Below, piece by piece: positions 32,628 to 36,436 of a stretch of DNA of 64,000 bases. The notes under the pieces are model-generated. The model was not told where the DNA came from. It saw only the letters and a program-made list of their open reading frames with translations, and made no database searches. Numbering within the stretch: position 1 is the stretch's first letter; each line of letters starts with the position of its first letter. The position numbers were made by a program, and so were the translations under genes. Origin of the DNA: Methylacidiphilum infernorum V4 (GTDB lineage Bacteria; Verrucomicrobiota; Verrucomicrobiia; Methylacidiphilales; Methylacidiphilaceae); the NCBI RefSeq assembly GCF_000019665.1, contig NC_010794.1:1178001-1242000 (forward strand), written 5' to 3'.

Positions 32628-32700
32628 GGGGGTTTAGCTCAGTTGGTAGAGCGTCTCGTTCGCAATGAGAAGGCCAGGGGTTCGAATCCCCTAACCTCCA
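32628..32700 (+). tRNA. tRNA-Ala(CGC)
   Basis: A full cloverleaf can be folded by eye. The 7-bp acceptor stem GGGGGTT pairs with AACCTCC with one G-U. A D-arm GCTC follows, and the anticodon stem TCTCG pairs with TGAGA. The loop TTCGCAA has anticodon CGC at 32661-32663, which reads GCG (Ala). The T-arm AGGGG pairs with CCCCT around TTCGAAT. Discriminator base A; CCA is not encoded. It is the first feature of the unknown cassette that follows. Confidence 0.95.
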
Positions 32701-32961
32701 CATTTCTTGTAGTCAAAAACTTTATTCTTTTAAGCCTTCAAAAATTCCTTTCTGCTGCAACCTTTTTTTCTTTTAAATTCACCACAAGCCTTGATTTTGG
32801 AAAACCAATCCATCCGACGAAATTTTTTAAATCCTCAATCCAGATCGAAAAATCGAAACAAAATCGAAACAAAACCGTCACAAAAAATTGACAAAGCTTT
32901 CACATGCTTTGCCCGGGATTTCTAGGCTAAAATAAGGCCATCTTCCTTGACCTTGCCGCCT

Positions 32962-34233
32962 ATGGACCGCTCTTCGAGAGATATCGAGGAAAACGGGCAA
33001 CCCCTTTTCCCCTGGCAGAGACCCAAGCTTGGCCCCGTCCTCTTGGTTGGGGAAAGGCATGCTTTAGGTAAGGGGCCTCACGACTACCAGGAACTTCTTC
33101 TCAAGCAGCTTCCCCAGCTCTACGCAAAGAAAATGAGGAGAATAGCCATCGAGCTTCCTCCCGAATTCCAACCCTACGTGGACCGGATCCTTAACCTTTA
33201 CGAAAATTACGCCCGACTTCCTAAAGAAAAACAAGATGGGATAGAGAAAGAAGTCTGCAAAATCCAATGGGAAACCGCAAGCCTGGGAGATTACCATATT
33301 GTAATAACCCCTGAATATAAGGAAATTCTCAAAGCCGTTGGCCGGTGGAATGCTGGAAGGAAAGAAAAGGTAAGCGTTTTTTGCATCGATGCACCCTTGG
33401 CGGACCACTTCAAGGCGATAGATGAGGATCAATGGTATAAAGTAATTAACCTGCCGAAAGAGCTCCAGCCAGAAGTGGACCGCTACCGGCAACGGATAAA
33501 AGACCTTCCTCTTGGAAAAGAAAGATGGGATCTCAGGGACCGATTCAAAAGTTACTTAATGGAATATTGTGAAAAGGAAAACAAGGAACTTTTTGAGAAA
33601 GGGAAAAAAAAGATTTCCCAAAAATTAGAAAAATTTTTGAACATCTTTGATCACGCCCCCCGACTGGATAAGGTTGGCCATAGTCAAGACAAAGAGCCGC
33701 CTCTGCAAGAGGTAGAGATTCATCATCCCCTGCGTATTTTCTGCAGAGATGTACCCTTTAGGTATTGGACACAGGAAGATCTTAACGATTTTTGTGATGA
33801 ATGGGACGAGTCCTTTACCCCTGAATTCATCAGCCAGAGAGACAAGGCAATGGGCTGGAACCTCTACACGATCGCCAAAAACAATCCCCGCTCCCTGACC
33901 CTTTCATACAACGGGGCTTTGCACTTCAGCAAAAATATAGACGGCCTTCCTAGGGAAACGACCCTGGCTGAAGAACTAGAAGGCTGCGGGATAAAATTTA
34001 AGCTTGGAGGAAGGAAAGCTAGCGAACTAAACGAACATTGGAATGTCAAGACTTACGAAGAGAAAGCCAAGGAGATTAGGGAGCAGGCTTCTTTACTGGA
34101 AGAAGGGCTGGAGGCCAGAAACAAGGAAAGCTACCTCAACTTGAACTTGAACCTGTACCAAGACAAGCAACGCTACCTTTCCTTGGACTTGGACCGATAC
34201 CGCCAGAGGGATCGAGGAGGGTATGGCCGATGA
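32962..34233 (+). CDS. TIKI/ChaN/erythromycin-esterase superfamily-like protein, unknown function
   Basis: No direct family match is evident, but the motif pattern fits the TIKI/TraB/ChaN/EreA-type fold. An early GERHA (about residues 30-34) is followed by a helix and a strand with AIELPPEF. The C-terminal part has QRDKAMGWNLYTIAKN (with RDK near 293-295) and SYNGALHFSK (NGALH near 317-321). Members act as metalloproteases, haem-binding proteins or esterases. Here the function is unknown. The chain has about 423 residues from the ATG at 32962. There is no signal peptide. A disordered Asn/Arg-rich C-terminus repeats YLNLNLNLYQ. It is translationally coupled to the next gene by an ATGA overlap. 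Confidence 0.55.
   Translation: MDRSSRDIEENGQPLFPWQRPKLGPVLLVGERHALGKGPHDYQELLLKQLPQLYAKKMRRIAIELPPEFQPYVDRILNLYENYARLPKEKQDGIEKEVCKIQWETASLGDYHIVITPEYKEILKAVGRWNAGRKEKVSVFCIDAPLADHFKAIDEDQWYKVINLPKELQPEVDRYRQRIKDLPLGKERWDLRDRFKSYLMEYCEKENKELFEKGKKKISQKLEKFLNIFDHAPRLDKVGHSQDKEPPLQEVEIHHPLRIFCRDVPFRYWTQEDLNDFCDEWDESFTPEFISQRDKAMGWNLYTIAKNNPRSLTLSYNGALHFSKNIDGLPRETTLAEELEGCGIKFKLGGRKASELNEHWNVKTYEEKAKEIREQASLLEEGLEARNKESYLNLNLNLYQDKQRYLSLDLDRYRQRDRGGYGR
33929..34017 (+). repeat. Direct repeat copy A (89 bp), inside the TIKI-like gene
   Basis: These 89 bases are repeated at 35574-35662 with nine differences by my count. The encoded segment is GLPRETTLAEELEGCGIKFK, which follows the NGALH motif. 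Confidence 0.9.
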
Positions 34234-35528
34234 TCTTTTCCTTTTTGTTTGCTACCTTGCCTTTTAGTTTGCCTTATAACTTTACGGTGACCGAGCGGAT
34301 GGAAGCGGTAAAGAAAACCGATCAGCAAATCCTTTCCCTTCCCTATCCTTTGCGGATGACCTACCTGACCTTGGTAGAAGATGAAGAAGGCAAAGCTGAA
34401 AGGAGGATAGACCGGCTGGGCAAGAACATGAAGTTTACCTATCCCAAGGCTGGGGTCATCGAGTATTACATCTACGGGAAGAAGAGCCGCAGTTACGATA
34501 AGTACACGGCGGTCGATCTCAAGAAAAAGGAAAATCGTGATAAGCTCATATGCAGTCCCAATAATTACTTGGAGGAGCCCTATAACTGGTGGCTTTGCGA
34601 AGTAGACTTTGTCGATTACTCCAAGGAAGACCACGATTCATCCCCGGGGGTGATCTTTTCTTTTCCATTCATGGAATTTCCGGCCGAGGGTTTTGAACCC
34701 TTGCCTTTTTCTTCCCCCGGGCTTTGGGTGTATAGGTTTTTAGGGGAAGAGAGGTGGGGAGAAAAAACGGTCCGGCTTTACCGGGCAAGCCGCTTGGTGA
34801 GTTTTAAGGAAATATATATGAAACCATACAAGAGGGCCTTGGGGTCTGGAGTAGTTATATACGGGAACGAAGTAGAGATCGAGGAAAAGCAGGCGAGACT
34901 AGAAAAGACCCTTTATGTGGATAAGGCCACGGGGTGGCCCTTGAAGGTAGTGGACCTGGGACAGGACGGCAGTCCGGCCATAGAAACTACCTTTAGCGGT
35001 TGGAAAGAAGACGGGGTAGGGAAAACGGACTTTTTCTTCCCTCAAGGTTACAATGAAGGATTTGAAACCCACGGGTTTTTGTATTTTTTGGGGATTAAGG
35101 ATCTAGAAGATCTTAAGGATCTCCAGTTTTCAAGCGAAGGATCCCTAAAGGAAAGCGAAGAAGTAAGTGGAGAAACATTCTTTGAGAAGCTTCGAAACTA
35201 TGTTTTTAACGGCCGGCCGGATGCTCCAAGGCTTTACGGGTGGGATGAAAACGCCTTTTACGGCTGGCATAGGTATATCTATAACCCCGAGTATGTGAAG
35301 CATCCTATATATGTGCCAAATGCCGTACCTTCGGATATTGGTCTTTTTAGACCGGACGATGATTTAACAGAGCATCATCCTCCTTGTTCCCCGCAGTTGG
35401 ATTACTCCTTCATGGTCTTGTTTGGGGATTACGACTACGGGAATTTCCCCTATTACAACAAGGAAAAGATCCGCCGGTACATCCTGGAACAGCATAAAAG
35501 GCTAAACGAGGCTTCGCAAAAGAAATGA
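34230..35528 (+). CDS. Secreted protein, unknown function, partner of TIKI-like gene
   Basis: The 432-residue protein starts with a hydrophobic signal-like segment of about 18 residues. It is rich in aromatic residues and beta-strand-like patches. Segments such as LYVDKATGWPLKVVDL, ETTFSGWKEDGVGKTDFFFP and YGWDENAFYGWHRYIY are visible, but I do not recognise the family. The layout, with a signal peptide and then a strand-rich region ending in a Lys-rich helix, recalls LolA-type or outer-membrane lipoprotein-sorting proteins, at low certainty. The start overlaps the stop of the preceding gene (ATGA), and the end overlaps the next start the same way, so the three genes form one coupled unit. 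Confidence 0.6.
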   Translation: MIFSFLFATLPFSLPYNFTVTERMEAVKKTDQQILSLPYPLRMTYLTLVEDEEGKAERRIDRLGKNMKFTYPKAGVIEYYIYGKKSRSYDKYTAVDLKKKENRDKLICSPNNYLEEPYNWWLCEVDFVDYSKEDHDSSPGVIFSFPFMEFPAEGFEPLPFSSPGLWVYRFLGEERWGEKTVRLYRASRLVSFKEIYMKPYKRALGSGVVIYGNEVEIEEKQARLEKTLYVDKATGWPLKVVDLGQDGSPAIETTFSGWKEDGVGKTDFFFPQGYNEGFETHGFLYFLGIKDLEDLKDLQFSSEGSLKESEEVSGETFFEKLRNYVFNGRPDAPRLYGWDENAFYGWHRYIYNPEYVKHPIYVPNAVPSDIGLFRPDDDLTEHHPPCSPQLDYSFMVLFGDYDYGNFPYYNKEKIRRYILEQHKRLNEASQKK

Positions 35529-35845
35529 TTTTCCCTGTGATCGGCTCCTCTTGCCTAGGCATGGGTTGTTGCAGCAAAAATCTAGGCGGCCTTCCCAGGG
35601 AAACGACCTTGGCTGAAGAACTGGATGGTTACGGGATAAACTTTAAGCTTGGAGGAAGGAAAATAACCGACTATTCTCTGGTAATGGGAAAACTACTCCC
35701 GAATTTTCTGGGTCTTTTGAAACTTCAGGACTTATCCAAAAAGTATTACCTCGCTTACAGGGTTCCCCTCCTTGTGAAGCTACAAGGGGAGGCTCATTTC
35801 AAGCTCGATACAATAAAAAGCAAAGCCCATCATTCCCAAGAATAA
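35525..35845 (+). CDS. Remnant-like protein containing duplicated C-terminal segment of the TIKI-like protein
   Basis: The frame encodes 106 residues. Residues 20-48 repeat the segment around GLPRETTLAEELDGYGINFK of the 423-residue protein. The segments before and after it have no counterpart there. The N-terminal part has Cys-rich GSSCLGMGCCSK. The frame starts on the ATGA overlap with the preceding gene. It is either a truncated paralogue left by duplication and deletion or a small functional protein. I favour a remnant. Confidence 0.5.
   Translation: MIFPVIGSSCLGMGCCSKNLGGLPRETTLAEELDGYGINFKLGGRKITDYSLVMGKLLPNFLGLLKLQDLSKKYYLAYRVPLLVKLQGEAHFKLDTIKSKAHHSQE
35574..35662 (+). repeat. Direct repeat copy B (89 bp)
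   Basis: This is the second copy of the 33929-34017 repeat, with nine differences. Copies A and B are separated by 1.6 kb, which is about the length of the intervening secreted-protein gene. This suggests tandem duplication of the gene pair followed by deletion. Confidence 0.9.
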
Positions 35846-35866
35846 TTTCTAGGGTTCAAAACTTGC

Positions 35867-36436
35867 TTACTTTCTTAAAAGTCCATCCATCCGGAAAAGC
35901 GAAAAACTTAAGACGGTCGCTAAACCCACCGCCCAGAGTAAAATCCCTGTTTGACTAGCCGTAAAATAATAACTCCAGGGCTTGATAGCAACCACGATAG
36001 GAAAATCAAAAGTGAGCTCTTCACCCTTCTTCTTTTGCATGATCACTTCCAACCGATACCTTCCTTTTTCCAAGTAGGCGGGAAATGAAATGGTCCCCCC
36101 AGGATAAGTTTGAAGGGGAAGGGATTTAACCAGTTCATTTTTTTCAGAAAAAAGCTTTACCATAACGGGGGTCGTTCTTGCCTTATCATTGATCAGGTCC
36201 ACCACTATAGTCGCTTGTCCGGGATCGGGAACATTGTCACAAAAGGTGTCCCCTTGGTAGATCGATTTCTGAGTGTAAAGATCCATATGCACAGAATAGC
36301 CATCCTTTTCCATAACAGGACACTTGAACCTGCCGGCATTTTTGTTGCAGACATGACCACAATCGGCAAACGAAGAACAAGGCAAAATAAATAATGTTCC
36401 TACCGTTCCAATCAGGAATAAAACTAGGGATTTCAT
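35867..36436 (-). CDS. Exported protein with C-terminal membrane anchor
   Basis: This 189-residue protein begins with a signal peptide of about 24 residues. The mature region has CGHVCNKNAGRFKCPV, a Cys-rich start, then a beta-rich domain with QATIVVDLINDKARTTPVMVK and YPGGTISFPAYLEKGRYRL. This resembles an immunoglobulin-like or FixH/CcoH-style fold. Residues 160-182 form a C-terminal membrane helix. Family not recognised. It is convergent to the unknown cassette at 34-36 kb. Confidence 0.6.
   Translation of the reverse strand: MKSLVLFLIGTVGTLFILPCSSFADCGHVCNKNAGRFKCPVMEKDGYSVHMDLYTQKSIYQGDTFCDNVPDPGQATIVVDLINDKARTTPVMVKLFSEKNELVKSLPLQTYPGGTISFPAYLEKGRYRLEVIMQKKKGEELTFDFPIVVAIKPWSYYFTASQTGILLWAVGLATVLSFSLFRMDGLLRK

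What the first reader, a model, noticed from the sequence alone, without database searches (positions are those of the whole stretch)
32628..35845. Unknown three-gene cassette next to tRNA-Ala: possible small genomic islet
Immediately after tRNA-Ala(CGC) come three + strand genes coupled by ATGA overlaps: a TIKI/ChaN-like protein, a secreted protein of unknown fold and a short protein. tRNA genes are common integration sites. The cassette looks GC-richer than its flanks and none of its proteins belongs to a family I recognise. This is the strongest candidate here for an undescribed system.
Basis: partly seen in the sequence, partly recalled or inferred. Interest (0 to 1): 0.7.

Follow-up and report, generated by a model that had tools for sequence, protein, structure and literature searches.

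The report
Duplicated Tiki-like enzyme and partner gene
Next to a tRNA gene of the volcanic methane-eating bacterium Methylacidiphilum infernorum sits an inserted duplicate of an undescribed two-gene unit (a probable Tiki-type hydrolase and an unrelated partner protein); its copies trade DNA with each other, but nothing shows that the tRNA was used as an integration site.

Summary
The tRNA-Ala(CGC), the three ORFs and both ATGA overlaps are real. The genome is the size of Methylacidiphilum infernorum V4. Four congeners carry the same tRNA and downstream gene without the cassette: about 10 bp separate them in three, and 456 bp of different sequence in the fourth. So the 3.1 kb is best read as an insertion. 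It is not a tRNA-integrated island: there is no integrase, no repeat of the tRNA 3' end, no tRNA at the other copies, and G+C (46.5%) is close to the genome's 45.5%.

The cassette is one of several copies: a two-gene copy 1 Mb away (89% identical, its first gene stopped by a TGA) and a decayed first-gene copy. "Gene 3" carries a fragment of gene 1, so it is a relic. ORF1 founds a family found only in Methylacidiphilaceae, with the Tiki-superfamily 2His/2Glu residues invariant; the structural top ranks are EreC, ChaN, RRSP, BcR135 and HopBA1. Relatives usually pair with an exported-looking partner. ORF2 is found only in this genome; fold unknown. Copies are mosaics: near-identical tracts around old diverged islands, the mark of gene conversion. 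Substrate and biological role are inferred, not shown.

The parts
32628..32701 (+). tRNA-Ala (CGC); intact; neighbour of the insertion, not shown to be its integration site
   Evidence: same tRNA in four congeners; no second copy of its 3' end in the window
32702..35866 (.). stretch between tRNA and downstream gene that is absent (about 10 bp instead) in G009, G010 and G011 and replaced by 456 bp of largely unrelated sequence in G008
32869..35487 (+). duplicated unit (copy A): 89% identical to copy B at G000:C1:2200220-2202837; includes the leader and both ORFs except the C-terminal tail of ORF2
32962..34233 (+). ORF1, 423 aa (alternative start TTG 32947, 428 aa): Tiki-superfamily protein, no signal peptide apparent
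33049..33060 (+). GERH motif (G30 E31 H33), first half of the 2His/2Glu motif; invariant in 9 relatives
   Evidence: motif as described in PMC6254334
33151..33153 (+). E64, second Glu of the motif; invariant
33838..33843 (+). R293-D294, invariant
33913..33924 (+). GALH (G318, H321), second GxxH motif; invariant
34230..35528 (+). ORF2, 432 aa, ATGA-coupled to ORF1; only relative found is copy B (84-85%); hydrophobic N-terminus; fold unknown
35525..35845 (+). ORF3, 106 aa, probably not a gene: relic carrying an ORF1 fragment
35572..35662 (+). 91-bp fragment of an ORF1 copy (90% identical to window 33927-34017, 96% to copy B over 78 bp)
35867..36436 (-). downstream gene, 189 aa, conserved next to the tRNA in all five congeners; outer boundary of the insertion

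Best explanation
The cassette is an inserted duplicate of a two-gene unit. ORF1 is a Tiki-superfamily 2His/2Glu protein, predicted to be a cytosolic hydrolase (peptidase or esterase). ORF2 is a co-translated partner that probably works at or beyond the membrane. The unit lies between tRNA-Ala and the next gene by duplication, not by tRNA-directed integration. Its copies in this genome evolve by birth, decay and short-tract gene conversion, which overwrites most of the sequence and leaves islands of old divergence. Shown here: duplication, absence from the site in congeners, mosaicism, motif conservation. Well supported: membership of ORF1 in the Tiki superfamily. Inferred: hydrolase activity, cooperation of ORF1 and ORF2, location of ORF2. 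The most likely role is hydrolysis of a peptide or ester by ORF1 in a pathway with ORF2; the substrate is unknown.
For: Copies: B 89% over 2.6 kb, C 81% over 1.1 kb. Absent at the site in four congeners. Tiki: G30, E31, H33, E64, R293, G318 and H321 are invariant in 9 aligned members, the other eight 20-27% identical to ORF1, matching the 2His/2Glu set described for RRSP and Ere enzymes (PMC6254334); the eight best VIA-align rows are all from five Tiki-superfamily proteins, EreC, ChaN, RRSP, BcR135 and HopBA1, Z 5.8-7.4; ChaN (PF04187) is a weak hit of homologue L072 over the same motif. Unit: in most relatives' loci an exported-looking protein gene lies just upstream of the ORF1 homologue, several overlapping. 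Conversion: of 238 informative sites in ORF1 of A, B and C the three groupings cluster (91 runs, permutation mean 144, 0 of 10,000 reach it); B and C share one patch and the same in-frame TGA; islands have pS 0.32-0.42 against 0.04-0.08 outside, so they are old, not freshly mutated.
Against: The ORF1 model is only moderate (pLDDT 61); Foldseek E-values exceed 0.2, and Z 6-7 is the range the tool warns may be unspecific. No Pfam hit above cut-off for any member. ORF1 is a very long branch. No expression, activity or interaction data. ORF2 lies downstream of ORF1, whereas the relatives' partner lies upstream and is not detectably homologous.
Confidence: 0.68

Rival explanations
1. A small genomic islet inserted site-specifically at the 3' end of tRNA-Ala by an integrase.
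For: It lies next to a tRNA and is absent from the site in congeners.
Against: No repeat of the tRNA 3' end with up to 3 mismatches in 64 kb, no integrase among the ORFs, no tRNA in the 19 kb stretches around copies B and C, no shared 10-mers at the two edges, average G+C for the genome. In G009-G011 a normal gene follows the same tRNA directly.
Confidence: 0.05
2. A biological-conflict module (defence or competition with kin or phage): ORF1 hydrolyses a peptide, cofactor or signal inside the cell and ORF2 or the exported partner senses or delivers; diversity in loops is kept by selection.
For: Confined to one family of bacteria, multi-copy, high turnover with pseudogenes; mosaic copies with diverged islands where pN/pS is about 0.8 against about 0.3-0.4 outside; in G003 and G005 homologues lie next to type I-G-like CRISPR-Cas loci; in G000 and G008-G011 several lie near a VirB6/TrbL-like membrane protein with duplicated neighbours.
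Against: No PADLOC hit for ORF1-3. Synonymous divergence is equally high in the islands, so conversion history explains them without selection. The two CRISPR neighbours may be one inherited arrangement or chance.
Confidence: 0.2
3. A decaying selfish or ORFan family without current function: duplicates are by-products of segmental duplication.
For: Copy B ORF1 has a TGA, copy C has several stops, and a further fragment sits in ORF3; copy A is a long branch.
Against: In copy A both ORFs are intact with invariant catalytic residues; A/B indels in ORF2 keep the frame, and outside the islands pN is below pS (0.012 against 0.042).
Confidence: 0.15
4. ORF1 is a ChaN-like haem or iron handling protein and not a hydrolase.
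For: ChaN is one of the three best fold matches and the only recurring Pfam name of plausible relevance among homologues.
Against: All four 2His/2Glu residues are kept, as in hydrolytic members; no lipoprotein signal.
Confidence: 0.1

Closest known systems
Tiki superfamily (EreC and BcR135 erythromycin esterase group, ChaN, RRSP, HopBA1; TraB and Tiki proteases from memory)
   Same: GxxH near the N-terminus with Glu in the motif, a second Glu about 30 residues on, an Arg, and a second GxxH; the predicted core ranks these structures first.
   Different: Sequence below every profile's cut-off; an insert of roughly 200 residues, largely helical, between strands; low-confidence C-terminal part ending in DRGGYGR; co-translated with an unrelated ORF; no signal peptide apparent.
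ChaN, Pfam PF04187 Cofac_haem_bdg
   Same: Weak profile match of homologues over the GExH region, fold rank 3.
   Different: Matches are below the gathering score; no lipoprotein signal; ORF1 itself does not match.
Partner genes of ORF1 homologues (IDLAALV-type exported proteins, alignment A4)
   Same: Sit beside the Tiki-like gene, often overlapping, with a clear signal-like N-terminus.
   Different: Upstream rather than downstream, 210-330 aa, no detectable homology to ORF2.
tRNA-borne genomic islets
   Same: Neighbour of a tRNA gene and absent from the site in congeners.
   Different: No integrase, no att repeat, other copies are not at tRNAs.

Membership tests
Tiki superfamily (ORF1) | 2His/2Glu residues (ExH, second Glu, second His) conserved | tested here: met
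   E31, H33, E64, H321 invariant in 9 sequences; motif definition from PMC6254334
Tiki superfamily (ORF1) | parallel beta-sheet core flanked by helices like EreC/ChaN/RRSP | tested here: inconclusive
   All eight top VIA-align rows are Tiki-superfamily structures at Z 5.8-7.4, but model pLDDT is 61 and no Foldseek E-value is below 0.2
Tiki superfamily (ORF1) | sequence profile match (PF04187) above cut-off; a curated score, not a structural feature, so failing it lowers certainty without excluding membership | tested here: not met
   No match for ORF1; homologue L072 E 0.038, 14.4 bits against a 27.7 cut-off
Tiki superfamily (ORF1) | hydrolytic activity | not testable with these tools
   needs biochemistry
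tRNA-integrated genomic island | direct repeat of the tRNA 3' end at the far border | tested here: not met
tRNA-integrated genomic island | integrase gene | tested here: not met
   none among the cassette ORFs
tRNA-integrated genomic island | absent at the same site in relatives | tested here: met
   G008-G011
LolA-like outer-membrane lipoprotein-sorting fold (ORF2) | profile similarity | tested here: inconclusive
   hhalign against LolA-like proteins of the phylum gave nothing above reversed decoys, but the query profile had 2 sequences, so power was low
Known anti-phage defence proteins | PADLOC profile match | tested here: not met
   ORF1-3 without a hit; the only hit of a homologue is a weak Cas6b match, E 0.0024

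The most novel reading that the evidence does not exclude
A Methylacidiphilaceae-specific conflict system in which a cytosolic Tiki-fold hydrolase works with an exported, loop-variable partner, and in which ectopic gene conversion among dispersed copies keeps a pool of variant loops; in some species it is a neighbour of type I-G-like CRISPR-Cas loci.
Probability: 0.12. Interest if true: 0.7.

Novelty: new member of a known kind. Interest (0 to 1): 0.4.

Why it matters
It adds an unlisted, lineage-confined family to the Tiki superfamily, whose members include Wnt proteases, macrolide esterases, haem-binding proteins and bacterial effectors. It also gives a clear case of dispersed bacterial paralogues in concerted evolution with sharply bounded unconverted islands, in an extreme acidophile with a small genome. 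If the islands are under selection, the family would point to a conflict or recognition function in verrucomicrobial methanotrophs.

Tried and rejected
tRNA 3'-end repeat search: none. Templates for the variable islands elsewhere in the genome: the DNA search of the whole cassette found only copies B and C and tRNAs, so a cassette-library mechanism has no visible donor. Fresh hypermutation of the islands (retroelement-like) was rejected because synonymous divergence in them is as high as nonsynonymous, with indels. ORF2 as LolA-like (a lead from memory of the motif pattern): no support by hhalign against LolA-like proteins or decoys. The ORF2 AlphaFold model failed with 2 sequences (pLDDT 33) and was not searched. 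Relatives in plasmids, phages and viral contigs: none (plasmids searched with ORF1 only, phages with ORF2 only). In the rest of the phylum sample: none for ORF1 or ORF2 as single queries; the ORF1 profile was run by the genome search on the family only, and its one scan of genome contigs found only a family member. Copy C in G009: its flanking genes lie in two differently oriented blocks there, so the site is a rearrangement breakpoint; copy B's site was not located. A tree could not place ORF1 securely because of its long branch.

Full report
What is there. The window lies at 1,178,001-1,242,000 of a single 2,287,145-bp contig, the published size of Methylacidiphilum infernorum V4 (PMC2474590). 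tRNA-Ala(CGC) is at 32628-32701. Three ORFs follow, joined by ATGA overlaps at 34230 and 35525. ORF1 most likely starts at ATG 32962 (423 aa). No protein has a curated family match.

The cassette is a duplicate. A genome search with its DNA found copy B (89% over 2.6 kb, 1 Mb away, both genes) and copy C (81% over 1.1 kb, ORF1 only). Copy B's ORF1 is stopped by a TGA; copy C has several stops and frameshifts. ORF3 contains 91 bp of an ORF1 copy and is probably a relic, not a gene. A distant paralogue at 700 kb is the family member shared with other Methylacidiphilum.

It is an insertion, but not a tRNA island. In G009, G010 and G011 the same tRNA is followed after about 10 bp by the same downstream gene; in G008 456 bp of largely unrelated sequence lie between. 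There is no repeat of the tRNA 3' end, no integrase, and no tRNA in the 19 kb stretches around copies B and C. The GC contrast with the flanks is real (46.5% against about 42.5%) but equals lysS next door and is near the genome mean. Only one genome per species was held, so variation among strains was not tested. Absence from the four congeners could also be loss, though the single-species distribution of ORF2 makes gain the simpler reading.

What ORF1 is. A profile from five members found relatives in 11 of 13 Methylacidiphilaceae genomes (two of these matches are weak); single-sequence searches found none in the rest of the phylum sample. Nine aligned members keep G30, E31, H33, E64, D143, R293, D294, G318 and H321. 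The Tiki-superfamily catalytic set is two His and two Glu (PMC6254334). The model (pLDDT 61) aligns best to EreC, ChaN, RRSP, BcR135 and HopBA1; these five proteins fill the first eight rows. Each Z is modest and Foldseek alone is not significant, so the case rests on motif and ranking together.

What ORF2 is. Its only relative is copy B. Its N-terminus is hydrophobic without a basic n-region, so export is possible but not clear. Its fold could not be predicted. In relatives a different, clearly signal-bearing protein precedes the ORF1 homologue, often overlapping it. Co-translation suggests, but does not prove, joint function.

How the copies evolve. A and B are near-identical over long runs (up to 168 identical bases) broken by islands of strong divergence. 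In the ORF1 part of A, B and C, B and C agree against A around 33295-33345, A and C agree against B around 33714-33830, and A and B agree mostly elsewhere; this clustering never arose in 10,000 permutations. B and C share the same TGA within their shared patch. In the islands both pN (0.25-0.33) and pS (0.32-0.42) are high, outside both are low. Old divergence with partial overwriting by gene conversion therefore explains the pattern better than new mutation in the islands. The same pattern appears in the tandem partner genes of G009 and in duplicated genes of G003, but not in a single-copy control. Selection on the islands is possible (pN/pS about 0.8) and unproven.

Function. The best-supported statement is a predicted cytosolic Tiki-type hydrolase, co-translated with an orphan partner. 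A conflict role is a rival: high turnover, variable loops, and proximity to type I-G-like CRISPR-Cas genes in G003 and G005 fit it, but none is decisive.

Novelty. ORF1 founds an unlisted family of a known superfamily; ORF2 is an orphan. I found no publication on the unit; the V4 genome paper describes other expanded families and 731 ORFans.

Noticed in passing
L045:8571-16317 (G000 about 699-707 kb); also L072:2962-6984: VirB6/TrbL-like membrane protein gene followed by tandem repeats of its 3' end, each with a ~220-aa protein ending WYAWYR (alignment A5), next to the Tiki-like paralogue; a recurrent arrangement in Methylacidiphilum.
   Followed up: partly
L043:1898-11861 (G005) and L076:6198-16916 (G003): Tiki-like gene and exported partner directly beside type I-G-like CRISPR-Cas genes (Cas4-Cas1 fusion, arrays of up to 53 repeats; Cas2 in G003) in two species of the sister genus.
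   Followed up: partly
L076:7997-9274 (G003): In-frame fusion of a truncated Tiki-like N-terminus with the exported partner inside a tandem array of partner genes.
   Followed up: no
window 34195-34230; ends of homologues in L019, L020, L071, L076: Many ORF1 homologues end in DRGGR or a close variant (DRGGYGR, DRGGRA, EREREGR) although the preceding region is hardly conserved; a possible C-terminal signal.
   Followed up: no
L078:6079-7488 and L079:6121-7488 (G003): Two ChaN/Tiki-like proteins (GELHDD/GEVHHD motif, PF04187 E 0.003-0.007) with the same near-identical-plus-island pattern, flanked by duplicated 333-aa genes.
   Followed up: partly
L007 against L130 and L131 (G009): The site of copy C in M. 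infernorum coincides with an inversion breakpoint relative to G009.
   Followed up: partly
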